DNA of 64,000 nt from positions 744,001 to 808,000 of the forward strand of contig JAECYW010000003.1 in assembly GCA_023014335.1 (NCBI GenBank), written 5' to 3'. The position numbers were made by a program, and so were the translations under genes. Positions 4,968-57,420 of the stretch are shown in pieces. Positions within the stretch are counted from its first letter, which is position 1, and the number at the start of each line of letters is the position of its first letter. The notes below the pieces were generated by a model. It was not told where the DNA came from. It was given only the letters and a program-made list of their open reading frames with translations, and made no database searches. The DNA is from Galerina marginata. Taxonomy: Eukaryota > Basidiomycota > Agaricomycetes > Agaricales > Galerinaceae.

Positions 4968-5801
4968 TCAGCTGATCGGACGCGTATGGAGCACCCACAC
5001 GTCCGACTCCTTTCGACTGGGTGTAAGTCCCGCCCAGCGAGTTAGGAAGTTCAGATTAGCTCTAACATTCGAACTAGCTTCGTCGTCCCCCATCACCGGG
5101 CCCATCGCCTGCGTCGCCAACCTGGCATACGCCGACATCTGGCGCTCCATGGAGCTACGATCAACCCCGAGGCGCTCCATCATAAGCTGCGTCGCGTTCT
5201 GCCGTGCCCCGACGTACACCGCGCGCAGCACGTCCCCGACAGTGATAACCCCGCTCCTCCCAGGGTGCACCGTGATAAGCTGCCTAAACGGCTCCAGCCT
5301 TATATGTAGCACCCCGCCTCCCCTCGCAGGATCCGTCGCCGGCACCGTCGTCCAGTGATACCCGCCCATGAACTGGCGCCCTACCGCAGTCGGCTCCGCG
5401 CGTTCCGGGTGCTTGTCGACGAGCCAGTCGAGGGCGCAGTCCTGGTTGGGGCTGGGGCTGGGGCTGAACGCGAGGATGGGGTGGATTTTGAATAAAGGCG
5501 GGAGGGGCACGCGCGCGTAGGGGGAGAGCTCGTAGATGAGCGGCGGGGGCCCGACGGACCACTGGGGCTCGTTCAGCCCGTAGGCGGTGGTTTGGGTCCG
5601 GAAGGGGTATGGGACGCGATGTGACTCACCGCTGCCATGGCTGTTCCGGTGCGCATGGGCATGAGCGTGGTGGTGGGTGGTGGTGGTGGTGGTGTCGATG
5701 CGCGTGAGAGGGTTGTTGTGGTTGCCTTTGGACACCCGAGGGCTGTATGCCTGCTCGTCGGGCCTGAAGTAGGCGTTGTCGCTGTTGATGATTCCGGGCA
5801 T
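4968..5801 (-). CDS. DUF6699-domain protein
   Basis: A 277-residue protein read without introns. Residues 1-75 are low complexity (a Thr run followed by an alternating His-Ala stretch at about 38-52). From about residue 88 the DUF6699 pattern follows: LPPLFKIHPILAF, then a SPSPSP repeat, a core with LHIRLEPFRQLITVHPGRSG, and VTVGDVL-like ITVGDVLRAVY. This family is abundant in Agaricomycetes and has no established function. The low-complexity part reflects GGT/GGGGCT-type repeats in the DNA at 5449-5470 and 5669-5695, so repeat length may vary between strains. The start at 5801 is the first ATG in the frame. A second overlapping frame starting at 5839 is a shadow. Confidence 0.75.
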   Translation of the reverse strand: MPGIINSDNAYFRPDEQAYSPRVSKGNHNNPLTRIDTTTTTTHHHAHAHAHRNSHGSGESHRVPYPFRTQTTAYGLNEPQWSVGPPPLIYELSPYARVPLPPLFKIHPILAFSPSPSPNQDCALDWLVDKHPERAEPTAVGRQFMGGYHWTTVPATDPARGGGVLHIRLEPFRQLITVHPGRSGVITVGDVLRAVYVGARQNATQLMMERLGVDRSSMERQMSAYARLATQAMGPVMGDDEASSNVRANLNFLTRWAGLTPSRKESDVWVLHTRPIS

Positions 5802-7649
5802 TGTGTTTGCAGGGGTCTGTTTAGTACCGATGGAATCAATTAGACGCCACAGATTTCGTTATTCCCCAGCCGGACTTACGGGTTTTCGTTAGCGTTAGGT
5901 GGTGATGATATGCTCGCGATGCACGATGTGCACGGCGTGCACGACGATATGAGTTGAGGGTGTGGTGCAGTGGTATGCAAAAGATAAGATGTAAAAACGG
6001 TACCGCAGCGTGCAGCAGGCTTTTAATGAGCGAGCATCCCCCGCTTCCGTGCCCATGCCCAAGGCTGGGGACCTAACAGTCACATACAGACTGCGTGTCA
6101 TCCTCGTCCTCGGAACCGCATCACCCTGCGAAAATCCTGGGGGAACGAGGCAGGACACGATTATCAGGAGATCTGATTGGAGGTCACGAGCACTGATGCG
6201 CAGGGACGTGCTACACTGGCAGGACAGTTAAAGGACAGGTTAAAGCCGTCGGTAAGGACTCGGAGGGGCTTTCTCCTCGGGTGGGAGGGATGACTCTGGA
6301 TGACCCCCTGCGCCCTATGATGGCCGTAAGATAAATTAAGCTCATGGGCTTTGCGGGTTTCTCTTGAGTAGGGGCTTTGGCAGCAGATACTAATAGACCA
6401 TGGAGCTTCACGCGCAGGACCGAGGCTTCTTTGCGAGAGGAAGACGGTTATCAATGTCAGTACCAGTACAAAAATACGATGATACGTGCACACGAGCGGG
6501 GAATGGGGATATGTAAGTGTTCGGACCCTGACGTGTTTCCGTACTGTGTCCGACATCCGTTGCAATTGACGGATCACAGGGATAAAGTACTGACGGTGGA
6601 GACGATTACGCCGAACCGAGGATCGCCGCCTGCGGTTTTTGTTCGTGATGACAATTGTTCGTGTATCAAGTTCCGGATGTTGCATAAGCGATTAGACGCT
6701 GATGATGATGATGTTGAGATGATTCAGACAAGGTTACGGTTCTTATTAAGAGGGTTGAGTAAGAAAGAGTGAGGGAAGGAAGGAAGGGTGTCCAATGGGA
6801 TAAACCTGAGCGTGAAAACTTCACCGTGTACTGTACTCGTATCCGTCAGCTTTGCGCCGAGGATGTCAGCCCATCTCAGTTGGACCCAGTAGATGTAAAA
6901 TAATACTCGCTCCACGGACCACCAAGCATATGCATGTGGAGTTCTCGCAAAGCGCGACGAGGTCTCCGTCCGCTTGGGCCCCTTACGGAATGCGTAGGCG
7001 GTTAAGCGCTCGCACTAGTACTAGTATTCGGCCGAGGTCAGTGACGTCCCCGAGATGGAGCGCTTGTCAATGAGAGCTGCGGGTGGAAGCTCTTTTGTGC
7101 CTCATTGACATGAGAACGAAACTCGGATCAGAAGAGTCAGGAGTGGTCAAAAGCTCGGAGGACCGAAGATATACCGGTGGGAGAGAGGGAGGGTTACTTG
7201 GGAAATGGTAAAGTTTCATCGCTGGGTGCTGGAAGTCGGCAGGACGTGGTCCGTTGCAGGGAACGAGCTGCTGTGTAGCCCTCAGGGACCTTCTGACCTG
7301 TCAGGCTGCGACTCGGGGTACATTGGGCGCCAATTCGTTCCCGAGTGGCCCGCCCTCGAAAGCGCTTATAATTACCAGAAGTCACAGAAAACAATTGAGT
7401 TGGCAATCCGCTTGGTTCATTCGCTCATTCGTAGATATTATGTTGTTATATCCAAAGTAATATTCCGCCGATTTATTTTGCACCGATTGTATGGTTTCAA
7501 AAAGGAATCAAACGGTAAATAAGGACCATGTCCACTGCTCAAGAAACGGGATCAAACAGTGCGAAAGGATGTTAATTTTGAAAGGAGAAGTTCTTTGATA
7601 CAAGGTAGTTGTTACATTGATTTGTTTATTGTAAAGGTCCCTCCAAAAT
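5802..7649. other. intergenic, no supported gene
   Basis: About 1.85 kb. It holds overlapping open frames on both strands at 6164-6772 (up to 173 codons) with no recognisable family, no hydrophobic pattern and no clear splice structure. From about 7530 it overlaps the 3' flank of the duplicated reductase unit. Confidence 0.5.
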
Positions 7650-25419: not shown

Positions 25420-28400
25420 TTGGCGCGGTCCGGCTTCCCTCGAGGTACAGAGATTAATGACAAGTGCTAGAACGCTGAGTGGTATTTCGGGTGGAAAGGG
25501 TACCGGTAGTGGTTGGGATAGACGTTCAGGCCATTTATATGGTCCCAGAGCGTCACTATTTGCGCATGTAGTGACTTTTGTGGCCCAAGTACAATGCCCA
25601 GTTCTGTTGATCCTATATATGGGCCGTTCGAGTAAGGCCGTGTGCCACCTTGCTAGGTATTCCCCATCTGTATGACTGTCTTCAAATGGTTATTCAGAAG
25701 ATTAAAAGGACGACGCGTTGGTGGGAGTTGAATTGCATATCCCAAGTGACAAGTCAACCATCTTTAGTCACCAAGAACATGGTCATGTAAATACGTTGCA
25801 TGTACGTAGATCAAACAAAATGCCACTGAGCTTAGGGGATGCAGTTATAGAACAGTACAAGCAAGTTGCTTCATGGTTCTGCAGGCGCATCCGTATTATT
25901 TACAGTCTTAGATAGCCAGTGTTCGTTTCACTGGCACGAACGTGAAGTGATGCGAGATTAATTTCTTAGAATTCAACCCTTCGCCGAAATAATGCACTGG
26001 ACTTGGTCTTGAAGGCCGATGCTTTGCACGGCAAAACTCGTCCCTAGTCGGTTCAGGTTTTTTGATCTCTGTATAGTACTGTGAACTGTGATATTCATTA
26101 ATTTAATATCTGGCAGGCCTTCTAATTCACTGGGTGGTTCTATGTTTTTTTACAGACATTTTCACCAAGCATAGTGAGTATTTTTCGAGCAAGTTTTGAG
26201 ATTAGATTTTATTATTCAAGAACAGGGAAATTGATTCCAAGGCTAATTTTTGTTAAATGCTGTTTCTGCGCGTGTTGGTGATGAGTGCTCCTGTCTGCTG
26301 CTCGAGCACCAGATTTTACCAACTTCGCGTGATAGGCGCCGTACGCATACCGCTTATTTCACATTCCGTGCCGGACACAGCCACTATTTCCGTCACGAAG
26401 GTTGTCTTACCGGAGGCGTTTTTGAAAACGCCCCTACTAAGCCAACGAGTCAACGACCATTTTTATTCACTCCCCCCATGTGTCGCAGCGTCACCCTTGA
26501 TTGTTTGTTGGTATATCTCATTGCTTACCCCATCTGATATTTACCTCCACCCGAACTTTGTGTCATTCTAATGGTATCTAATCTCTTGTCTCCCCGTCGT
26601 ACCTTCTCCAAATCCCACCGTAAGTATTTCATTTTACAGAATCAAGACAGCTGTTTCAGCCATAGAAAAATCCCCACTTATTGTTAAGTTCATTATTTCC
26701 TCATTTACTCTTGCTTATCTCCTGTTTATAACTCATATTTGTGACAATGCACATAGGTGCTTGTGGCTGTACGCTTCGGGCACGCAGATTGCTTATTTAA
26801 TAACAATTCAACGCTGTTGCCTCTGCCACCACCCCCAACTGGGTTGTGCCACTCGTCGCCAACCTCCGGTTGGCTCCTCGTGGCCTGTTGCGACGAGAAA
26901 GAGTCGGGAATGTAAGCTGAAAGAACAACGCATGTTACCTCGTTCTATTATTGACCTGGACCGGCCACAAAATTGGCTGATTGTAATGCTTAAGTTTCCG
27001 ACAAACGCCAATTCTATTTTTGGTTTCGCCGTGCTTCTCGGCTCCAAACGGTCACACTTCAAAGTTCAACATTCGCGTCCTTTCTGCTTTCCTTCATTTC
27101 CTTTCCTCCGAGTTGACTCCTTTGCGCTCTTGGTATGTTATATTATTTTTATTACATTGCTTTCTTATGACTTACTTTCTAGGAATGTTAGTTTGTCGTC
27201 ACCGCTCCTTCACTGGCGTGGCAAAGTCTACCGCGGCTCTCCACCTGCGTTGTCCTGCCTCATATTTCCCTCCTCAACTTCTACGCTCCGCTGTCTTTTT
27301 CCTAGCAGTCTTTTACGAAGATATCGTTATGCAAGTTATGGGCTCTACCCGTGGCGTCCTGTCCCGCGTCCCCCTTCTCAATTGACACCTCCGCCGTCCT
27401 CATCTATCCTGCGGCTTCTTGGCCGCAACATTGTCGCGCACATCATGGCCTCCACCCGCGGTGTCGTGTCTCGCGTTTTCCCTCAAGCTTTTTAACGACG
27501 ATATTGTTGTGCTCCTCATGCGCACTTTCAGCGGCAGCCCCGCCGTCATCGATATTTGCACATCTGATTACGCCAGCGAGGACCCCCCTAGCTCCCTGCT
27601 ATGTCAACCGGTGTCTACAGGAGAGCCGCAAGTGGAATGAGAGCTGGGTACTCTTATATGGCAGGAGTCCTACTGAGTACGTCTTCTGTGTATAAATCCC
27701 TCAATCCTGCCTCCTCACGAACTTACAGGTTACTCTAACTGCACGACCCATGTGCATTTTTGTCCGTATCGGCCCCACACCGTTCATTGTTCATGAACCC
27801 CAAGCTCATGCCGCCACCTCCAACCTCCTCGGTGTGTACTGACTTTCCTCATCATGTGAAGTTATCAGAACATTTTCTCAGCAATCTCTCTCATTCGACC
27901 TGTGTTCTTTGTCAACGGGCCCAGTGAGCTGTCCCGGTGCTCATAAACCCCACCATCCTCGACATTCCCTCGCTTCATACCTGATCATTTCTACTCGTCC
28001 ACCGGCAGGTACATAGAACACCATTTTGCCAGTTCTCTTCGTTAGAATCCCGCCCATCGTTGTGCTCCCAAGATGCCGACCATTTCCGGTAGATGGATCG
28101 TGGTGCTATAGGTTGCCACCAACGCCGACGCCGACATTCAACTCTTCCATGAGCCATACCCACATGACGACGATCTCGGTAGTGTTGCCACATCTTCTGT
28201 GATTTCGTATCTACACTCTTTAGTTGTGCGCTGTGTGGCTTTCAGTGGCCGTTTCTCTTGTCATAAGAGTATGTTTCTTTTGTATCTGTTACAGCTACCA
28301 TAGTCAAACAATAGTACACTTTTTCTGTAGTCATAGATGATATTTAAATACATTATAATCAGTGTAATCCACTATGGACTGTTGAAGAGAATCGTAGGAA

Positions 28401-28497
28401 AAGCAAAATTAAGAACATGTAAGCGACTTTATGTCAAATGAGCGACAAACATAAGCAACATTAGGCAATGATACTGTGATCGTCAGCGACATTACAA
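25420..28497. other. gene-poor, pyrimidine-rich stretch
   Basis: About 3.1 kb up to the transposon boundary. From about 26240 to 28290 the plus strand is markedly C/T-rich, which opens long but low-complexity frames (one of 244 codons at 26761-27495) with no recognisable domain. Degenerate tandem repeats lie at about 27236-27560. No gene is called. Confidence 0.55.
27236..27560. repeat. degenerate tandem repeat, about 105-110 bp period
   Basis: Three diverged copies start near 27236, 27339 and 27449 with GGCTCT/GGCCTC followed by CCACCYGYGGTGTC-like text and a CCCTCCTCAA/CCCTTCTCAA block. An ACGAAGATATCGTT/ACGACGATATTGTT pair (about 27316 and 27495) and CCGCCGTC pairs support the register. 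Confidence 0.4.
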
Positions 28498-28506
28498 GAA
28501 AGGACC
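28498..28506 (+). repeat. 9-bp target-site duplication, left
   Basis: GAAAGGACC immediately before the left terminal inverted repeat, identical to 34563-34571. Confidence 0.85.
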
Positions 28507-28649
28507 TAGTCTCGTCCCCATCCGTTCTGGTGAATATAAAAGGAAATCCTACCGTGGGATGGTAACTGTGATGGACGGTGAATCACCAGAACGTCTGGTG
28601 CATTCGAACCGTAACACCCCCCATGGTCACATCCCGTGATTAATGTAAC
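28507..28649. repeat. left terminal inverted repeat
   Basis: Matches the reverse complement of 34419-34562 with scattered changes. A block of about 30 bases around 28606-28638 (ACCGTAACACCCCCCATGG and onward) is identical. It contains a near-palindrome CCAGAACGTCTGG at 28586-28598, and GTTCTGGTGA (28523) facing TCACCAGAAC (28583), which could form a hairpin. Confidence 0.85.
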
Positions 28650-29111
28650 ACCCTCCCGCGCCCCCACTACGGGATAACAGGCGCGCGGAAACTGCACAGC
28701 TAGCATATCATAGCTTGTGGCACCGTAGATAGATAGTTTAGTGTGTCTTTAAGTCCCAAAAATTGTTCATTAGTACAAAAAATGATTCTATAATATTAAT
28801 ATCAATTCTTTGAAATTTCTTTGTGCATTTATCATCAGTGCAGTATGAAAAATACCCTCTGGCTTTGCAAGTGTTCAGTATTTAGATGCTTAGACACTAA
28901 CAGAGGTTTAAAACTGCAATTCTAGCTCGTGAAATTCATCTACATGCAAGGGAATCATGCTGTTGCACGAAGGAATGAAGCCTGTGTTTAATTGGAATTG
29001 ATTTGGAGCCACGGCGGCTATGATCGATCGGTCTCCAGGTCCTCGAAATTTCATTCAGAGAGGGAGAGATGAGGGCAAAGGAATATCGACTCGCATCCAC
29101 TGCCCAATACC
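28650..29111. other. 5' region of the DUF6589 gene
   Basis: About 460 bases between the left inverted repeat and the DUF6589 start. AT-rich, no open frame of note; presumed promoter and leader. Confidence 0.5.
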
Positions 29112-31730
29112 ATGGCCGACACTGAAGAAGCCTTAGAAAATTTATTCAACAACCGAGACGTCGAAGGGAATGAATCTGAAGCACCGGACACCTCATCTGA
29201 CGAAGAATTTGATCCGCTGTCCGAGCCAGAGGATGAAGAGGAGGCTCAAAAATCGGACTATCAGTCCGTCCTATGCGAAAAAACCAAAGAGACCTTGAAA
29301 TTTCTAGACTCAATTGGCTTTAGTCCAATTGGCTTGCTAAACGGACTGAGTTGGGGCGACTCCCAGTGCACCCAAGATCCAACTGTTCGAGCCGCACGAA
29401 CGTCGTTCCTTCAAGACGAGCTCCTATCAGTCATTCTCAGACGTTGGCACTCACCTCCGCGTTCATCCTTCTCGAATAAATCACGACCTAAAGGCGGTCG
29501 GAATATCACCCAAAAATTTGCTGTTGAAACTTTTCGAGACATCGTTATTGGTGAAATGAAACAACTCGCAAAGAAGATGCACCTTGATCCTCCAGATGAC
29601 ATTAAACGCGAGAACCTGGTGGACATTGGTTTCGACAATCTAGAGTCCGACATGAAGGAAGCCGCACCAACCCTTTGGGAATTCCTTGTCACTGTGATTT
29701 CGTACAGGAAGAGGGGAAAATCCGAGAAGGACTTCTCCAAGGTGAGCAGAACAATTCCTATAGTAATTTCACCCTTTGAATTATCGGTCAGATTGCTGCA
29801 TCACAAATCGCTGTCATGTCCTACACACAATCTCGCAACAACTGCCGGTTTCAGAAACTTCTGGCATTGTATTTCTACTTCAAAGGTGTATCAGCAAAAG
29901 GTTTCGACACTTTGCATGCGCTCGGACTCACCATGAGCCATAAATGGACAGCGGATTCGGTCGAGAGAATATCTGCCGCATCACTAGAAGAAGTCATAGC
30001 AATGATGAAGATTTACCCATGGCTCATTTCATACGATAATGTCAACATACCCTTCCGAGTCTTCTCTCAAAGACTAGATAACCAGGGCGAGTTTGGAAAC
30101 GGGACAGCAGGGACAGTGTATATCAAGCCAAATGCGAAATTATTACCAGAAGGCCTAAACGAAGACCTCAAAAGAATGCGGAATGAAGGAATCAAGAATC
30201 CACTTACCGAGCTCGAAATCATGGACATCGGCGACGCTGCCTTCGTCCATATTGCCCAATTCCAAGAGTATGAAATCCTCCGCTTTCTTTTGGACAGTCC
30301 AGACTTTGACCTTCGAACATACACCGGGAAGGGGAGTTTAGAACTGGAACCACCATCGCCAATCCATCAGCTGGCTTCGGGTCCCGAAAACACAACCTTA
30401 CAATACCTACTTGGAACTGTCAATATTGCAGAAGCCAGTTACGAGGGAAACAGCAACTTAATTGAGGAATGGTTTAAGCAACTTGGTTGGGGGAATGCTG
30501 GAGCAAAGATGAAGGTGGCGATGACTCAGATCGTATCTTGGATTGGAGACCAACTTACCGTCGACCGACTCCGAGGATTATTCAAGTACCGCGCGGAGGA
30601 CAGCAACTCGTACGAACGTCTTGATTTCTCAGTCTTCCACTTTGGCTGGTTCCACCTTCTAATGGCCTTTGCTGTCTCTCTTCACAAGCAATACGAGGGT
30701 ACATCGCAAACTCGAGGCCTGAAACAAGCCTTTCAATTGCTCGAGAAGAAAGGCTTAGCAAAAGCACAAACCAAAGGAGTCTTTCACCATGATCTCGATG
30801 AGGCTCTCCACCATGTTGCCGAGGCTCACATTCGCGAGGATTGGAAGGAAATTGCCAAAGTGGAGAATTTGGCAGACCTAAGGAGCAAAACCCCTGCGGA
30901 GCTTCGTACACTTGCAAAGAAGATTTTCGAGGAACGTGCTACCAGCCAAGCAATTGACAAGATAAAGGCGAAACCTGTTGAACAGCAAGATGAAGAGCTA
31001 TGTCAGATCATAATGTGGAACAGAGACATACTACAATACATCATCCTGCGAAAAGCTATCCACAATGGCGATGTTGGTTTAATGGAAGACATGCTCGTAC
31101 CACTTCTCTATCGCTTCCTTGGTGGTGGAAATGGGAAATATGCAGTCGAAATTCTGGAGTTGTTGCAAGGATTGCATCGCGAGTATCCGCCTGAGCTCAG
31201 GTGCGTCAATGCATTTATAAAACAAGTACATGCACTCACCCACCGAAAGAGATTTTGTACGCGAACATTGCTGGCTTGTTAATACAACCGGCAAGGAAGG
31301 TGGCTTCTGCGAAATTGATAAGGCACAGGAGCACAATATCAAGGATATCAAAGTGTCTTACCGGTCACAGGGACCCAATATCAAATGGGAGTATCTCAAG
31401 AAATTGCATCCTGCAATCCCGGTAATCCGCGCAGTTGCAAATCATGTTGAAAAAGAATTCGGAACTCTGACACGGGGAAAAAAGCACAAGATCCCACGGA
31501 AAGAAGGTGACATTGTCAAGCTACAGATATCGTACAGCACACCAAGGCTTCACAAGTACACCCTAGGTCGGACGGTGAAAAGAAAAGAAAAGATCGTCGA
31601 TGTTCCTACCAAAGGGGCTGTTAAGTTGCAGGGGGGGAAGGTCCTTGAGCGGTGGAACAACTTGAGGGCATTTCCGAGAGCGACGGAAGAGAGTTGGGAT
31701 GAATTCCTGATGGACCTTGACCAGCTTTGA
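29112..31730 (+). CDS. DUF6589-domain protein, candidate transposase
   Basis: Three exons (29112-29741, 29792-31200, 31250-31730) give 839 residues. The N-terminus is very acidic (residues 1-60, DEEFDPLSEPEDEEEAQ). Residues about 210-800 match the DUF6589 family common in basidiomycete genomes, which has no established activity. Two acidic motifs resemble metal-binding sites: WLISYDNVNIPFR (Asp at about 292) and IGDQLTVDRLRGL (Asp at about 463). A later conserved-looking stretch is FGWFHLLMAFAVSLH. The C-terminus is basic (REGDIVKLQ-like KEGDIVKLQ, RTVKRKEKIVDV). Because it lies inside a TIR element with a 9-bp direct repeat, I infer that it is the transposase with an RNase H-like fold; this is not shown by sequence alone. 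Its last 110 bases overlap the RecQ coding end on the other strand. Confidence 0.85.
31621..31730. other. 110-bp antisense coding overlap
   Basis: The DUF6589 reading frame stops at 31730, while the RecQ frame on the other strand stops at 31621. The overlap depends on the last RecQ intron (donor after LDFQ near 31972, acceptor near 31912), which is well formed and keeps frame. Confidence 0.7.
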
Positions 31731-34326
31731 TTAGCGGTCGTGGTCGTGGTCGGGGTCGGGGTGGCATTGGTGGTGGTGGTAAGTTTTCAGTCTGGGAAGT
31801 AGGAATCATGGAAGGTTCGGCAGGTTTGGCGGTCTGAGTGGCAGAAAGCATTCGCCGTTTGTATGGTCTTTTTGCAGGCAGTGTTGTGGGAGTTGATGAA
31901 CGGCCAACCTATTTATCATTCAGTTAATAAGTTAATAGGCTATATGAAATGGTGATACTATTTGCCTCACCTGAAAGTCGAGAAGCATTCCGAAAGGACT
32001 GGAGAGTGCTGCATTGGCTGGCGTAGAGATGGAGAAAGGCTGACGTGAGTGGATAGCTAACGGTGTTTGGGGGGGTACATCCTTGAAATTGACTGTGAGG
32101 CAGCCAGCTAGTGGCCGACGTGCAGTCGACGAAGGTTGAGGTTTAGGTGCCTGGAGTTGTTTCTCCAGTTCCTGCTTCCTTTTCTCTGCCTCTCGTTCCT
32201 GCATCTCTTGATCTTTTTTCTCTTGATTACGTTGGCGGGTAGCTTCCTTTCGTGCATCGGCTTTGGCCTGTTTGTTGGTTTGTTTCTGTTCGTCAATATT
32301 CTTCAGCAATCGTAAAATTTCTTGACCATGACGCGGCGCATAGATCCATCCTGTATGCTCTGCAATATCTTCTGGTGTCTGGATGACGCGACTGGATGCT
32401 AGTTTGGTGAGGACGGTGTCGGACATGAATCCCTGGACAGTGAAAGGGCTATGACCGTACGACCTGTATTTCGTGTTGTGCCGCCAAGCTTCGAGGGACG
32501 AGCGAGCCTGTTCAAGGTGCTCACCCCGTCGTGGTCCCGGTTTACCTCCGCCACGTTTTCGCTTGCCTCGTGAATCGGGAGACTTTGACGGTGTTGATGG
32601 TGCACTCTCCGCATGTTGGCCAACCTGTGCTGGAGGTGTTTGCGGTCGAACTGAGCTGGGGCCAGTGCCCTCACAGTTATCGCAACATACATGGGTAGGT
32701 GCTGATGCATAAATGAGCGTACAATTATACAGTGAATAATAAAGCATACATTTGCGGTTGGGCGGGTTCTCAAAGTACTCATCGAGAACGTCACGACGAC
32801 AACCCTTAGCTTCTATCCACCTTCGGAGATGCTCATCGACTTTCTTTTTCCACGTATGAGTCTCTGTGTCAACCCGTCCTTCAACCTCTCCTTCATCAGC
32901 CTCTTCATCATCACCATCGCCCTCCTCCTCCTCCTCCTCGCTTTCATCTGCTCGCATATCCGGCGGCTTCTTACGACCAATTTTCTGTCTTTCAAACATT
33001 GACTGCTCGACGAGCAAGATTGCTCGGGCGTTAACGCCGGCAGACCGCCCAGCTCGCCCAGCTCGTTGAACCCAAACGCAAAGCGAAGATGGCACGCCGA
33101 ACTGTATGACTTGCTTGACATCTGGTATGTCGGCACCCTGATCAAATAATAAGATAAATGGGTTCAAAAAATAAGACACTTTTAAACTTACCATACCCGC
33201 CGCTTCTGTGGCAATAAGTATCTTGACCTCTCCCTTGCGAAAGCGCCGCATAAGGCTCCGTTTAGATCTCCGGCTTCGATGGGCATGAAGATAGTCCACA
33301 AATTTATGGAGGTGGGGTGGCAACCATGACCGTACTTCGCGTGCCAAGAGCTGGCTGGTGACAACATTATTCACGAAGATGATAGATTTGTGGAGGTCGT
33401 CGGCATTGGTTGGAGTGGCGGTTGGGGATAGAAAGGGCTTGACTGCTTCGAAGTCAGTGCTGGACTTCATTGTGTGAACGTTGAATGCAACATTTGGGCG
33501 ATCGTTGCCCAAGTTCAAGAAAAAACTCTCATCCGCATCGATTCCCAGTTGTGCTCGGGCGTCCTTGAGAGCACTGGGCGTGAACGTGGCTGAGGTGGCG
33601 AGAATGGGAATGTGAGGTGGGAAGAACGAGCGAAGCTTCCCAAGCTCGCTATAGGCGGTCCGGAAATCGCCACCCCACTGTCCGATACAATGGGCCTCGT
33701 CGATGACCACCGCGCAAATGTCTTGGAATTGGGTCGTCGTAAGCTTGGAGCGGAATTCACGATGCTTCAAACACATCTCGGGTGATGTCAGGAGACCTTG
33801 AAAACGTCCCTCGTCCAAGGCCTGCAGACAAAATAAGTATTCGCAACGAAACAAGTAAATAGTAACAAAACTGCATACCTTAGCTAAGTCCTTATTCCAG
33901 GTATCCCCGTTGATAGCAGCAGCTGTTAAACCCATCTTTACAAATCTCTCTGCCTAGAAGAAATGAGAATCAATACAGAGTTAGGATAAGAACACATACC
34001 TGATCTTCTTGAAGCACCTTGAGGGGAGAGATGATTATAATCTTCTTTTTTGCATCCAAAGTGAGCGGCATCATGAAGGGCATAGTCTTGCCTGATCCAG
34101 TACCAGCGATAACGACACTATCAAGGCCGAGTAGGATAGCTTCCGTGACGTCCAACTGCCAGGAGTAAGGTTCACTGTGCATCCGTGCCCGAAACTCCGA
34201 TGTCAAACGCGCTCGGACTTCTGTTGAATCATAGCCAGAGGTTTTAACAGCTTGAAGGCGAGCACGTTGAAGGTTTAGATACGATCTTGTGGTCCGTTGA
34301 TCGTGACGAGATGACGCGGCAGGCAT
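31621..34326 (-). CDS. RecQ-family DNA helicase of the transposon
   Basis: ATP-dependent 3'-5' DNA helicase. The start at 34326 (MPAASSRHDQ) is preferred over an upstream ATG at 34413, which falls close to the inverted repeat. Motifs in order: YSWQLDVTEAIL (Q-motif-like), GTGSGKT (Walker A), IIIISPLKVLQEDQ, LLTSPEMCLKH, VIDEAHCIGQWGGDFR (DEAH), ILATSATF, SIIFVNN, ILIATEAAGM-GADIPDV, VIQFGVPSS and QRAGRAGR. Then comes a RecQ zinc-binding module (GCRRDVLDEYF and CCDNCEG). About 810 residues from six exons. The C-terminal third is a Lys/Glu/Gln coiled-coil-like stretch (EQKQTNKQAKADARKEATRQ) and a Pro/Arg tail (PPPPMPPRPRPRPRP). The last exon joins LDFQ to VGRSSTPTTLPAKRP and runs to 31621, under the DUF6589 3' end. 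Confidence 0.88.
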
Positions 34327-34418
34327 GGTGTTAAATAAAAAAGACGGCGGTAAGTACAGAGAGCGGAATAAACTAAACACTAAACAGGAAGTAGCCCGCG
34401 ACGCGCTGGCCACGTGTC

Positions 34419-34562
34419 GTTACTTTGACCACGGGATGTGACCATGGGGGGTGTTACGGTTCAACTGCACCAGACGTTCTGGGGACGGAGAGCCCCATCA
34501 TTTTAATGATTCTCACGGGGCGATTTCCTTATTTATCACCAGAATGGAGGGGAACGAGACTA
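34419..34562. repeat. right terminal inverted repeat
   Basis: Reverse-complement partner of 28507-28649, ending CGAGACTA. It lies about 93 bases upstream of the RecQ start and so probably includes its promoter. It keeps the CCAGACGTTCTGG near-palindrome and the facing ATTCTGGTGAT. Confidence 0.85.
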
Positions 34563-34571
34563 GAAAGGACC
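34563..34571 (+). repeat. 9-bp target-site duplication, right
   Basis: GAAAGGACC immediately after the right inverted repeat, same orientation as 28498-28506. Confidence 0.85.
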
Positions 34572-36492
34572 CTGAAATTCGAATAATCCCCTGATTTTTG
34601 CCTTAGAAAGGTAACAAGACCCTGAATCCATTACTATCTTAGGGCACTTAATTTCCACGCTACCAATCCTCGTATTAAAGAACGACATCCCCTAAAGGGG
34701 ACTCGTAACAGTCTTCCTATAAATATTGGAACCCGTAGAAGTTGGTCAAAGTATTTGAAACCAGCAACCCAGAATACCATAAGAGATGAACTGGCGTCAG
34801 TGCTCGAGTATATTAAGCTGCCCACTTTTCTTGATCCTGGTTGTCCCACGGGGACGCGACGCGCCCGCCACGAACATGTGATCGTGAACGTGTTGCTTAG
34901 AATAGAATTTCATGATGATGCATTGTCACGGTGGTTCTTACTCTGAACGTTGAACTTTCATCATATCTTCACTCCTGATGGAGTTGTAGATGATCATAGC
35001 TGGTGTCTACGCGCTCGACCAGAGACCAGGTACGTGATGATCACTTAAGTATGCCCCACAAACGATGTTGAACTTTTCTGGACTTTTCTGGCTTCGTTTG
35101 CCCAGTCAGATGGCTACGAGCTTATTTGTTGCCATCCTTTCCTTTGGGCGCTTAACACAGCGAGGCCGATTCCTGTTCGATTGGTGTCAAGGCAAGGAAA
35201 GGTACTGGCCAAGATCAACGCACTGGTGCCTCAAGCCTCGTACTTCAACGCGTCATTTGCGACACGATTGGCAGAGGGACAATGGACTACATTGATGGTA
35301 CTATTCTTACGAAAAGTATCGTGGAAGATGCCTGGTTTGATCATCTGAAGGTTGATAACTGGGAACGTTGGTTTGTCATTCCGCCCATTACACTTATTTC
35401 CTTGCAATCTGACTTTTCAAATTCGTGCTCTAGTCTCCAACCTGCCTCGACTCCTCTCGTTCACGGGCATATTTTCCTCCTGAAGTCCTCCCTCTCCGTC
35501 CAGGTAATGGCTCTTTCTATTCCTCGTTTCCATTACTCCGGAACCTCACGAGTGTTTTCCAGGAAAGTCTTCGCCGTCCAAGGCCAGTACAGCACCCTTT
35601 GCAGCACCTGACACCCTTTCTTATCAGGTACCCTATAGTGGAACGACTCGATCTGGACCTATCGTTCGCATGACTGGTGCCTGACATAGACTGGTTTCGT
35701 CATATATTTGTACGGCTGTGCGTATACCCAACAAGCCGAAATTCGCCGTCGTCCCTTACCCACTTTGATTCCATCCATCGGGCATTAAAATGTTTCGGAG
35801 AGATGGTGGTTGGTATCTCTATGGTCGAAAACGTTCCGTTATTGTTTCCACCCGAGTGTCACGATTCACTGTTGTTCTATGCAATTCGTTGCGCATAGCT
35901 CTTTAAATCGCTCAACCTTCCACGACGTCGCTTCTGGTGGTGATTCGCTGCCCCATTGACGGCAATCTATCTATCTCTCGCCTAGTCCGTTTTTTTGTTC
36001 TTCTGGCACCATCCTAACCATCGTTCTTTGCTAGTCGCCTTTCCGGCCAAAGGGCCACCGTACTCCACAGAAGTGCTGTACGTTGTTTACCCAGCCTTGT
36101 AGCGACGTCGCCACGAAGAACTCGCATCGCTTTTTGAGCAACAGCTTTTATCAAGACAGATGTCATAGACCTAAACTCTTAATTAAATCGTTTGCAGATC
36201 CAATCCGCACTACCGTCGAATTGGCAGAAGGGCAATGAAGGCTGTGTTACTTATTCTATCGCGTTGGAGATATGGTGGAGAAGCTATCTCGCACAGCACC
36301 TGGCGCCGGATAAGCATTTAACCTTGAACAACACGGTATGTTTCATTGTTCCATGCTCCGATCCATCATGGTTAAGTTATATATAGCGGCTCACTCAAGC
36401 TTTCGATGCCAATAGACCGGGAGGTTTCAGGGCGGCTGTTATATTCTCAACCAGTAATAAACAACACGAACCGCCGTCCCTATTCGCAATTC
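34572..36492. other. intergenic, no supported gene
   Basis: About 1.9 kb between the transposon and DUF6533 copy D. It contains pyrimidine-rich segments (35390-35640 and 35920-36020) and small unrelated open frames. Nothing is recognised. Confidence 0.55.
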
Positions 36493-52526: not shown

Positions 52527-55500
52527 CTACAGACCAAAGTGTACATAGGGAACCCAAGCCAGTAAGGACGATTCGATATCTGTCTCTGACTTCATGAGTC
52601 TCTGCCTCAACTGTAGTGTAGCATAATGAAGTGCTTGAGAAGCCTTCTCACCACTCAACGTCTTTTTATCCTCAGTTAATTTCATATAGAAATCTTCCGC
52701 AATTTCGGGCCCATACTTGTCTTGGATGGACCACATCGTAGCCACTACGCCTCGATAACCCGCCGCCAGCATTCCTGCAGCCAGATGCACGGCTTCCTCG
52801 GACAGTTTTTCGTCGCCAGTACTCGTTTGGCAGGCAGACAAAAATGCAAGATCAGAGGATAGCCTTTTCTGGATGATCGTCGAGAGCTCGAGGTGCCCAT
52901 CTTGAAGTGCGAATCCACTTTTCAACGGATCAGAAGTATTTTGGCTTGCATGGCAGGCGAAATGGATCGAACTGTGGGTTTCCATGTTTTTTATGACCTC
53001 GTCTACCGTGGCTGCGGCGCCTTCCAAGCAGAGAACTGGGAAATCGCAATCTTTTATCAGGCGCTGGATTGCTTGGACCTCGTTTTTCGTTTTCGGAATT
53101 GGGGCAAGGCCTGGCGTATTCGGTTGACTGACCATAAATAATCCCTCTTTTTGTTGAGAAGGCTTAGTGTCATGCGGCACCCTGTCAACGAGAGCGCGAA
53201 CGGTCGGCGTATACGAAAAAATCGCAAATTCCGAGAGAGTAGACGATAGTGTCGTTTTAGGACCGCCGTATATCCCAGCCGCGTGTATTGGAAGGAACGC
53301 CAATGGGCCAGTCGCACACCACCAGATGCGCAATAGGTCTAATGGTGGCTCCTTCATAGGTTAAAGATAATTCAATCAATCTGTAAGAGTCAAATGAATC
53401 AACGCTTCACTTACCGAGTATCCCAGCGCGTCGAGGATCGGTTTTACAACCTGCACCCACAACTGGGCAAGAATGGCCCTGATTCCACTCTTCTGCTCGA
53501 GACGCATTCCTCTCGTACTGGGTCTGGCTCCGCGCACTCGCACCCCAGACGCACGGAGGTGTGCCTGTAAGTCGGTTCTGAGCATTTCCGCCTTTCCGTA
53601 GGAGAAATCTGGGAGGCGAATGGCAATAGGTTTATCCTTCCCGGCTACAAGTCCCAGCGCGTCACAACGCTGTCGATGAATGTTAATGAGAACCACTATT
53701 CCCGACTTGGGAAGGCGGTGCATCATGGTGGAACAAGTTGGCGGGCGGAGGAAATCCTGGAAATTCGGGATTTTTCGAACTTTTGCGAGTAACCTTTCCC
53801 ATTCCTGTGCGAGTTTGATGTGGGTGCTAACTTGGTCCTGCAGCTTCATTTTCTGAGCGAGGCCAGTCCCGGGGGCTGGTCGACCTGTGTCTAACCGTGA
53901 CCCCGCAAATTCGAGAGCATTCGATACCTTCAGAAGCACATCAGCCAGAGGTGGATCGTAGGCTCGAAGGGCGTCGAACGGAGTTCGGAGATTGTTGAGT
54001 TGGTTCCACACGAGACAGCGACCTTCTTCAAGCAATTCCACTGCCGCACTTAATTCGCCGAGTTCAAATGCGGCGGCGGCGGCGGAGCTGGAAAGGTCAG
54101 AAATATCAGGAAGATTTGTGTGGCGTTTCTGAATGGTCTGGTCTAAGCCGACAACCAAGGACATGAGGTTAATCGCCGTAGAGTAAGCTGTAAGAACCTG
54201 TGAGGGGTCAATTTTATGGGCAGTTTCAGCCCATCTCCTTGCTGCGATGAGTTTTATCGACGGTATTCCGGTGGGATAAATTGCGGCCAGACGATGGTGG
54301 TTGGCAGCTGCAAGACCATCTTTGCCGTCGTGTGTGTATTCGAACCGCGACCCGTACGAGAGTCCAAGATTCCCTAGTATAATTGGCAGGCGAGAATGCC
54401 CTTGAAGGCTGAGGTCCAACGCCTTTTGTTGAGATGATATAGCTGTCGCAATATCCGTAAGATCTTCTGTGTGGCCAAACCGAGCTTGATAGGCGACGCC
54501 GATATTACTGAGCCTGACGGGCATTATGTCGTCGTCCTTTGGAGTGAGATCAATGGCTTTCTGATGAGAGGTTATTGCCTCGTTGATTTCTGTCAAATCT
54601 CCGGTAAGATTGAAGTGAGTTTGATATGAGTTGGCAAGATTAGCGAGCCGGTCAGGCAGGCTAGCGTCACCATCGGGGGTGAGTTGAGTGGATTTTTGGA
54701 AGTGTAAGATCGCTGCAGAGATGTCCAGAGCGTCGCCTGAGTGCTCAAATCGGGCTTGATACGATATTCCAACGTTATTGAGAAACGATGGCAGTGATGC
54801 ATGTCCCGTTGGGGTTCGATCGACTGCTTGCTGCTGGTATGCTATTGCTTCAGAAACATCGGCCACATCGCCTGTGCGTTCAAAGCGTGCACGATATGAA
54901 GCTCCAAGGTTACTTAGACGTTGCGGTAGAGCGATATCGCTGTCTGGGGTGAGAAGAACGGCATTTTGGAGATATGATATCGCCTCAGAAATATCCTTGA
55001 GGTCCTTTGTGTGGTTGAATCGATTGTCATACGCGCTTCCGAGGCCAGCTAACCTGCGAGGAAGTTCTGCATTGCCGCTCGGAGTGAGCTCGACGGCTTT
55101 CTGATGTGATGCAATTGCTTCAGAAATATCTGCAAATATACCGGTGCGTTCAAATCGCACTTCATATAATGATCCAAGGTTGCTGAGCCGACGCGGTCTT
55201 TCGACGTGGCCAATCGGGGTGAGGTTAATAGCCTCCTGTTGAAAGGAAACTGCTTTAGCAAGGTCAGTCATATCTCCTATGCGGTGAAATCTAGCGTGAT
55301 GTGAGCCGGAAAGGTTGCTCAACATGGTCGGTTTTTCAGTATGTCCCTCTGGAGTGAGATCGACTGCTTTTTGTTGCGACATTATGGCTTCAGAAATATC
55401 CGCGAGGTCACCCGTGCGTCCGAATCGAGCACTCTGCGACGATCCAACGTTACTCAACCAACGAGGAAGATCCAGGCGGCCTTCCGGTGTAAGACGAATT

Positions 55501-57420
55501 GCCTCCTTCTGGGATGAAATTGCTTTGGAGATATCATCCAAGGCTCCAGTACGATTGAATAGCTCTCGATAGGAAACGCCAAGGTTGTTAAGCATCGAAG
55601 GGATATTAGAACTGTTCTGGGGAGTGAGGTCAATTGCCTTCTGCTGGAACGATATCGCCTCCAAAATGTCGGAAAGATCTGCCGTATGCTCAAATCGCGC
55701 CTGAAAGGAAATTCCAAGATTATTGAGCCTGATCGACATGGCTTCATGATCTTGTGGAGTGAGCTGAATAGCTTTCTTTTGCGCTGCTATCGCATCGGAA
55801 ATATCAGCCAGATCACCGGTCTGACTAAAATGAGCTTGGTAAATGTTTCCTAGGGTGCTCAGCCGAGCAGGCATATCAACGTCTGCCTCCTCTGTAAGAT
55901 CTATGCACTCTTTTGCGTATGAAAGTGCTTTAGACGCGTCAGACAAATCTCCGGTGCGGTCGAATCGAGCTTCGTAGGAGGCAGTGAGGGTACTGAGAAT
56001 GGTAGGCCTAACCGGGTCTTCCAACGATACGAGATCGAGAGCCTTCTGCTGAGAAGATATCGCCTCAACGATATCGTTCAAGTCTCCTGTGAGGTTGAAT
56101 CGAGCACGATAGTACACCCCGAGGTTACTGAGCCTTTTAACCAACCCCGGGTGTTCGTCCGAAGTAAGACTGACAGCTCTTTGTTGCGATGATATAGCAT
56201 CAAAAATATCGGTAGCATGTCCCGTTTCGTTAAAGCGAATTTGATAGTAATTTGCCAAGGTGTGTAGCCTCGCAGGCAGGACAGGATTGTCATCTGCCGT
56301 GCCGTCGACGGAGAGTTGGAATTTCGAGGTCGCAGTTTCGAGATCAGACAACTCTCCTACCAAAGTAAAGCGCTCTCCATATGCGCCTGCGGAATTGTAT
56401 TGAAAATCGGCCGCCGTCGGGTCATCAGCTGGCATGAGCTGAATAGCCAGGTCGTAGGCGCGAATGCTCGCATCTAAGTCACTTTCAGCCCTCGTTTGGC
56501 GGAAGCGTTCGAAGAACTGGTCGCCGCAGAGGTTTAGAAGCTGTGCTTTCATATTGTCCTCAGTATCGTCGGGTAGCTCGAGAGCGATGGCCATTATGCC
56601 TTCGGGGTTATCAGGCAGCTGAGCTGCAATTCCCGAAGAAAAGGCTGTCAGTCATCAAATGAACATGATCGATAAAGTTCATACCGTCATCTTCGTTCTC
56701 CTGATCTCCTTCTTCGCTTGCAATTTCTTCTCTCGCAATTTCTTCTTCCAACATATGGGTAGAAATTTTGCAACTCAATTCCAACGAGAAAGACTTTGAA
56801 CCTCCTTCAAACTCCCGTACGATTGCTAGTAATGCAAAACATTGATAATTTAGAATGGAAATGACGGAAGTCGTTAATGATGATGCAAATGCTCACATCG
56901 TTGTCCTTCGACGTTATTTAAGGCGTCCTTGAGTTCAGCTTCGGCTATACGAATCTGCTGAGACTTTCCATTTTCACCCCATTTCGCAACGAATGTGAGA
57001 CCCCCAGTACTAGCGAATACCAAGTTAGGGTAAAAGTAATAAATCGCAGTAAGCGCGACTTACACGTCAATCATGCCATCATGTCTCCATTGATTCGAAG
57101 ATACTTTGTGAAACTCTAGAGAATCCGCTGTATCGCTCTCTGAATTCAGAAGTTTGACGTCCAGGCTGGACGGGATTGGGGCCTTATGATCCACGGAACT
57201 GAGTTCAATCACGATATCTGAGTGACGCGATCAGAACGGAATTTTCTTCATGAATGGCATACTAACCTTCAAGATAGATCTTTCCAGGAATATCAGTGGT
57301 GTCTGGTTCCGAGCTCTCCAAGACCGGTGAACTGCTATATAGCTCAATCAGCCGAATGCTTAGCCGAAAGTCGAAGTAGAAAGGAGCAAACATTGGGATT
57401 ATGGGGTCAGGATCGGCCAT
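52527..57420 (-). CDS. TPR-CHAT protein (caspase-like protease domain with long TPR array)
   Basis: Start 57420 (MADPDPIIPMFAPFYFDF). Small exons encode about 190 N-terminal residues, perhaps a C2-like strand domain (LSIRLIELYSSSPVLESSE, GLTFVAKWGENGKSQQIRI) and an acidic linker. The large exon 53376-56594 carries about 17 repeats of some 50 residues of the form DLxDIxEAIxxQQKAIxLTP, ending NNLGVSYRARF or similar (tetratricopeptide type). An intron after ALGYS leads to the CHAT domain: EPPLDLLRIWWCATGPLAFL, IHFACHA with the catalytic His, FLSACQT with the catalytic Cys, and ATMWSIQDKYGPEIAEDFY. Total about 1,500 residues. Bacterial TPR-CHAT proteins are sensor-triggered proteases. The fungal ones are expanded and mostly unstudied, and a role in signalling or cell death is inference. 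Confidence 0.85.

What the first reader, a model, noticed from the sequence alone, without database searches (positions are those of the whole stretch)
28498..34571. Complete TIR transposon pairing DUF6589 with a RecQ helicase, with 9-bp target-site duplication
Seen directly: inverted repeats of about 143 bp start exactly where a perfect 9-bp direct repeat (GAAAGGACC) ends on both sides, and two intact spliced genes fill the interior. Established: TIRs plus a fixed-length direct repeat mark cut-and-paste DNA transposons, and DUF6589 is a widespread basidiomycete domain without an assigned activity. Inference: DUF6589 is the transposase of a transposon lineage that also carries its own RecQ helicase. 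I know of no named superfamily with this pair.
Basis: partly seen in the sequence, partly recalled or inferred. Interest (0 to 1): 0.92.

Follow-up and report, generated by a model that had tools for sequence, protein, structure and literature searches.

The report
Fungal Academ-type transposon with RecQ helicase
A fungal genome carries a complete jumping gene that encodes a probable DNA-cutting enzyme and a DNA-unwinding enzyme; this kind of element appears to be known already, but the cutting enzyme belongs to a protein family that databases still list as having no known function.

Summary
A 6,056-bp element (28507-34562) has 143/144-bp terminal inverted repeats, a perfect 9-bp target-site duplication (GAAAGGACC), and convergent DUF6589 and RecQ-type helicase genes with open, GT-AG-spliced models. 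It sits in a dispersed repeat; two other copies of that repeat, aligned, hold the target once and uninterrupted. The same genome holds related DUF6589+RecQ elements, among them three identical 5,629-bp copies at different places, and short non-autonomous copies. In public fungal records the two genes are neighbours in at least two species. AlphaFold gives a DUF6589 homologue a confident model; its best structural matches are P-element, Hermes, ISCth4 and RAG1, and a D-D-E triad is nearly invariant. DUF6589 is very probably a DDE transposase. Apparently new: naming DUF6589 as the catalytic protein, and that its Pfam model starts after the first catalytic Asp. No Academ transposase sequence could be compared.

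The parts
28498..28506 (.). target-site duplication, left copy (GAAAGGACC)
   Evidence: present once at two aligned paralogous empty sites
28507..28649 (+). left terminal inverted repeat, 143 bp, begins TAGTCTCG
29112..29741 (+). DUF6589 (probable transposase) gene, exon 1, 210 codons
   Evidence: splice model
29792..31200 (+). DUF6589 gene, exon 2; holds Asp292 and Asp463 of the proposed D-D-E triad
31250..31730 (+). DUF6589 gene, exon 3 and stop; holds Glu707 of the proposed triad
31621..34326 (-). RecQ-type helicase gene: exons 34326-34000, 33953-33879, 33821-33192, 33137-32750, 32701-31971, 31908-31621 (stop included); 812 aa; in these models its 3' end overlaps the DUF6589 3' end by 110 bp on the other strand
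34419..34562 (-). right terminal inverted repeat, 144 bp
34563..34571 (.). target-site duplication, right copy (GAAAGGACC)

Best explanation
The element is a complete, probably autonomous DNA transposon of the Academ superfamily, AcademH-like lineage. The DUF6589 protein is its DDE transposase (RNase H-like fold with a long helical insertion before the catalytic Glu): it binds the ends, cuts the element out and inserts it at staggered cuts 9 (sometimes 8) bp apart, which host repair fills to give the duplication. The RecQ-type helicase is a regular partner that most likely opens or remodels DNA at the ends or at gapped, branched products, the step for which AcademX elements carry a nuclease instead. 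Shown here: boundaries, duplication, empty site, repeated mobility of the lineage, gene pairing, co-divergence, a predicted fold and a conserved triad. Inferred: catalysis, end binding, the helicase's step, and membership in Academ at the protein level.
Confidence: 0.85

Rival explanations
1. A separate, still unnamed superfamily: a P/hAT-like DDE transposon that took up RecQ independently of Academ.
For: Structural matches are led by P element and Hermes. The named DUF6589 homologues listed are, by names I recognise, Agaricomycetes (120 of 198 and 120 of 200 hits listed, among 8,000 scored candidates each). Direct comparison with Academ is missing.
Against: Published descriptions of Academ/AcademH (RecQ or helicase, fungi, 9-10 bp) match closely; two unrelated fungal superfamilies would have to share the same partner and nearly the same duplication length.
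Confidence: 0.12
2. A KolobokH element (fungal Kolobok with RecQ).
For: KolobokH encodes RecQ and is reported only from fungi; one Kolobok of a red alga has RecQ on the complementary strand, as here (PMC9587614, passage).
Against: Kolobok duplicates TTAA (recalled); here the duplications are 8-9 bp and without TTAA. KolobokH has RecQ downstream of the transposase domain; here it is a convergent gene.
Confidence: 0.02
3. Two host genes lying between chance repeats, or a long-dead relic.
For: The two inverted repeats of this copy are only 79% identical (115 of 145).
Against: Empty sites, identical relatives at three places, open frames, low chance of the end structure.
Confidence: 0.01

Closest known systems
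AcademH lineage of the Academ superfamily (Kojima 2020, Mob DNA 11:15; not held, known here only through citing papers)
   Same: DNA transposon found in fungi, helicase, 9-bp duplication in the window
   Different: two of seven full copies have 8-bp duplications; transposase sequences could not be compared
AcademX
   Same: same superfamily in print
   Different: nuclease instead of helicase and 3-4-bp duplications (PMC10045372, passage); that the nuclease is XPG-type is recalled
KolobokH
   Same: DDD/E transposon with RecQ, fungi (PMC9587614, passage)
   Different: TTAA target (recalled); RecQ downstream of the transposase domain
P element and hAT (Hermes) transposases
   Same: best structural matches of the model; RNase H fold with helical insertion and 8-bp duplications (recalled)
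   Different: no sequence match of the DUF6589 profile to them and no Pfam match to a known transposase domain; extra RecQ gene

Membership tests
AcademH (Academ superfamily) | encodes a helicase (RecQ / superfamily II type) | tested here: met
   DEAD and Helicase_C above cut-off, RecQ_Zn_bind at 17 bits below its cut-off of 25; best solved relatives WRN and RecQ
AcademH (Academ superfamily) | 9- or 10-bp target-site duplication | tested here: met
   9 bp in the window with empty sites; across the lineage 9 bp in 5 of 7 full copies and 8 bp in 2
AcademH (Academ superfamily) | terminal inverted repeats | tested here: met
AcademH (Academ superfamily) | transposase homologous to Academ transposases | not testable with these tools
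   no Academ sequence or profile at hand; source paper not held
DDE (RNase H fold) transposases | RNase H-like core with D in strand 1, D after strand 4, E on a late helix | tested here: met
   predicted model only: D302 in the first DSSP strand, D473 directly after the fourth, E717 in helix 712-726 of P0001; conservation; fold matches
KolobokH | TTAA target duplication (recalled) | tested here: not met
hAT | sequence-level hAT domains | tested here: not met
   window protein: PF20231 and one sub-cut-off unrelated match; four homologues: PF20231 and one sub-cut-off unrelated match up to E 5; fold resemblance is not a membership test
P element | THAP domain and sequence-level P transposase domains | tested here: not met
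   no such Pfam match

The most novel reading that the evidence does not exclude
DUF6589 elements are a separate superfamily: an Agaricomycete-wide DDE lineage, structurally near P and hAT, that has kept its own RecQ helicase as a transposition partner and is unrelated to Academ at the transposase level.
Probability: 0.12. Interest if true: 0.65.

Novelty: new member of a known kind. Interest (0 to 1): 0.38.

Why it matters
It gives a likely function to a family of 'unknown function' that is common in mushrooms and easily counted as host genes, together with RecQ partners that public records name 'bloom syndrome' or 'DNA 3'-5' helicase'. The Pfam match begins at residue 355 of P0001 while the first catalytic Asp is residue 302, which may be why the DDE nature was missed. 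Three identical copies in one genome offer a candidate active system for testing what a transposon-borne RecQ does.

Tried and rejected
Kolobok, hAT, P element, Helitron and chance were considered and set aside (rivals and membership table; Helitron because it makes no inverted repeats or duplication, recalled). A viral-contig scan with exon 2 found no relative. Joined flanks of L018 and L024 gave no empty site: empty sites were found for 1 of 3 insertions searched. Contig sharing: 42 of 107 DUF6589 hits share species and contig length with a helicase hit (tables typed by hand; 13 of 120 DUF6589 rows and 1 of 120 helicase rows without a usable organism or contig were dropped). My permutation control for it was badly built and gave a mean of 45, above the observed count, so the count alone shows nothing; I rely on consecutive gene numbers and co-divergence. 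Some listed hits are not paired, for instance Candolleomyces eurysporus H1R20_g739 and g734 on contigs of different length and Rhodofomes EVJ58_g5445 and g8451. For one search, 38 of the 42 were used; four were left out because two DUF6589 proteins shared one helicase. The distant-profile search listed 120 of 200 hits, all with PF20231 and none with an XPG domain.

End search: one search examined the window and 19 of the 20 fetched loci (not L036, seen only by the stricter scan); 7 of these 20 gave a pair of ends and a duplication that I accept. Palindromic 8- and 10-bp 'duplications' inside inverted repeats (L017 to L019, L021 to L023) and a weak pair in L025 were rejected. In L020 the end repeats are eroded: the local alignment covers only an inner stretch, 42 of 45 columns. 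Viral-protein fold search: best match a Pandoravirus hAT-type protein, E 0.01. Structures of a second subfamily and of the helicase were not predicted. One search used a reading frame off by one for DUF6589; and 24 are the corrected ones.

Full report
Observation. The window holds a complete transposon at 28507-34562 flanked by GAAAGGACC. Its inverted repeats align over 145 columns with 115 identities. It is the only pair in the window of exact 9-bp repeats outside an inverted match of at least 13 of 16; 100 random sequences with the same dinucleotide frequencies gave 2 such pairs in all.

Genes. Exons 29112-29741, 29792-31200 and 31250-31730 give 839 aa with PF20231/DUF6589 at E 9e-122. On the other strand six exons from 34326 to 31621 give 812 aa with DEAD and Helicase_C and a RecQ zinc-binding match below its cut-off; the best solved relatives are WRN and RecQ. 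In these models, which rest on no transcripts, the genes converge and overlap by 110 bp.

Empty site. The element sits inside a dispersed repeat. The two flanks joined with one copy of the 9-mer match 20 places elsewhere in the genome; 17 run through the junction. I aligned two, C4:467158 (95%) and C43:1376540 (89%): both hold GAAAGGACC once without a gap at the junction. These are paralogous, not orthologous, empty sites. For two other insertions no empty site was found.

Relatives in the same genome. PF20231 gives 45 matches, a lower bound. I fetched 20 loci. Seven copies, the window's included, gave both ends and a duplication: window GAAAGGACC, L018 CATCCCAGC, L019 CAAACATGG, L024 GGTCCACTC and L023 CCATCCAAT with 9 bp; L017 ACAGGCAC and L020 CGAGTGAG with 8 bp. 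Six have TAGTCTCG ends; L023 has CAGGCTCC. L017, L018 and L019 are 5,629 bp each with no difference, perfect 239-bp inverted repeats and different flanks, which points to recent movement. A 160-bp copy (L013, CGGCTGAAG on both sides) and a 999-bp copy (L010, duplication with one mismatch) are non-autonomous. With the window's helicase, tblastn finds a helicase in 12 of the 20 loci, in each case convergent with DUF6589; in 8 of 20 it finds none. Identities to the window proteins range from about 20 to 63%.

Relatives elsewhere. The homologue lists (120 of 198, 120 of 4,091 and 120 of 200 hits shown) hold unnamed metagenome proteins and named ones whose organisms I recognise as Agaricomycetes (not looked up). 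Consecutive gene numbers put the pair side by side in Agrocybe chaxingu and Rhodofomes roseus; other listed hits are not paired. In 38 same-contig pairs protein distances correlate at 0.907, above all 5,000 permutations. Host kinship contributes: swaps of partners within species keep r between 0.845 and 0.907, mean 0.869, but the true pairing ranks first of 288. So the pair appears to travel and evolve together.

What is known. PMC3627910 (passage) lists 'RecQ Helicase in Academ' among transposon-encoded accessory proteins. PMC6416283 (passage) says that most fungal Academ copies hold recognisable domains, for instance DEAD/DEAH helicase and recQ_fam, and so are often annotated as host genes. 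PMC10045372 (passage) says AcademH makes 9- or 10-bp and AcademX 3- or 4-bp duplications and relates this to helicase and nuclease. PMC10799480 (passage) says AcademH is found at low copy number in Basidiomycota, Ascomycota and Mucoromycota. PMC8290104 (passage) reports widespread putative non-autonomous Academ insertions in the mushroom Marasmius oreades. PMC9587614 (passage) describes KolobokH with RecQ. The AcademH paper is not held. Searches for DUF6589, and for PF20231, IPR046496 (a number from memory) and 'DUF6589 domain-containing', found only one optics paper, so I found no printed link between DUF6589 and Academ in the held library; Repbase and the AcademH supplement could not be searched.

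Mechanism. Most likely the DUF6589 transposase recognises the ends, excises the element and joins it to target DNA with a 9-bp (sometimes 8-bp) stagger. The helicase is a regular partner; its step (opening ends, clearing branched products, or restoring the donor gap) is inference. That AcademX carries a nuclease where AcademH carries a helicase suggests a shared step on branched DNA.

Verdict. A real, complete element of a recently mobile lineage; the transposase reading of DUF6589 is well supported; the claim of an unnamed superfamily is most likely wrong, since Academ/AcademH describes it. Protein-level proof of membership is the missing piece.

Noticed in passing
L022 and L023 (C43:2278500-2298499): Two neighbouring DUF6589+RecQ elements of another subfamily, 11.6 kb apart, with equal PF20231 scores; L023 has perfect 236-bp inverted repeats beginning CAGGCTCC and duplication CCATCCAAT.
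   Followed up: partly
window 28400-28506 and 34572-34710: The element is inserted in a dispersed repeat of about 240 bp; 17 other matches span the insertion point. What this repeat is was not worked out.
   Followed up: partly
L037 and L038 (C27:110079, C17:801423): About 86-bp foldback copies of the ends, the same in both places with the same near flanks, so one is probably a segmental duplicate of the other.
   Followed up: no
window 52530-56651, - strand: A long TPR-repeat frame next to a CHAT-domain frame.
   Followed up: no
window 4971-5858, - strand: A frame with DUF6699 (PF20415, E 7e-08), another family without assigned function.
   Followed up: no
P0121-P0240: Several of the transposon-type helicases are named 'bloom syndrome' or 'DNA 3'-5' helicase' in public records, which could inflate counts of host RecQ genes.
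   Followed up: no
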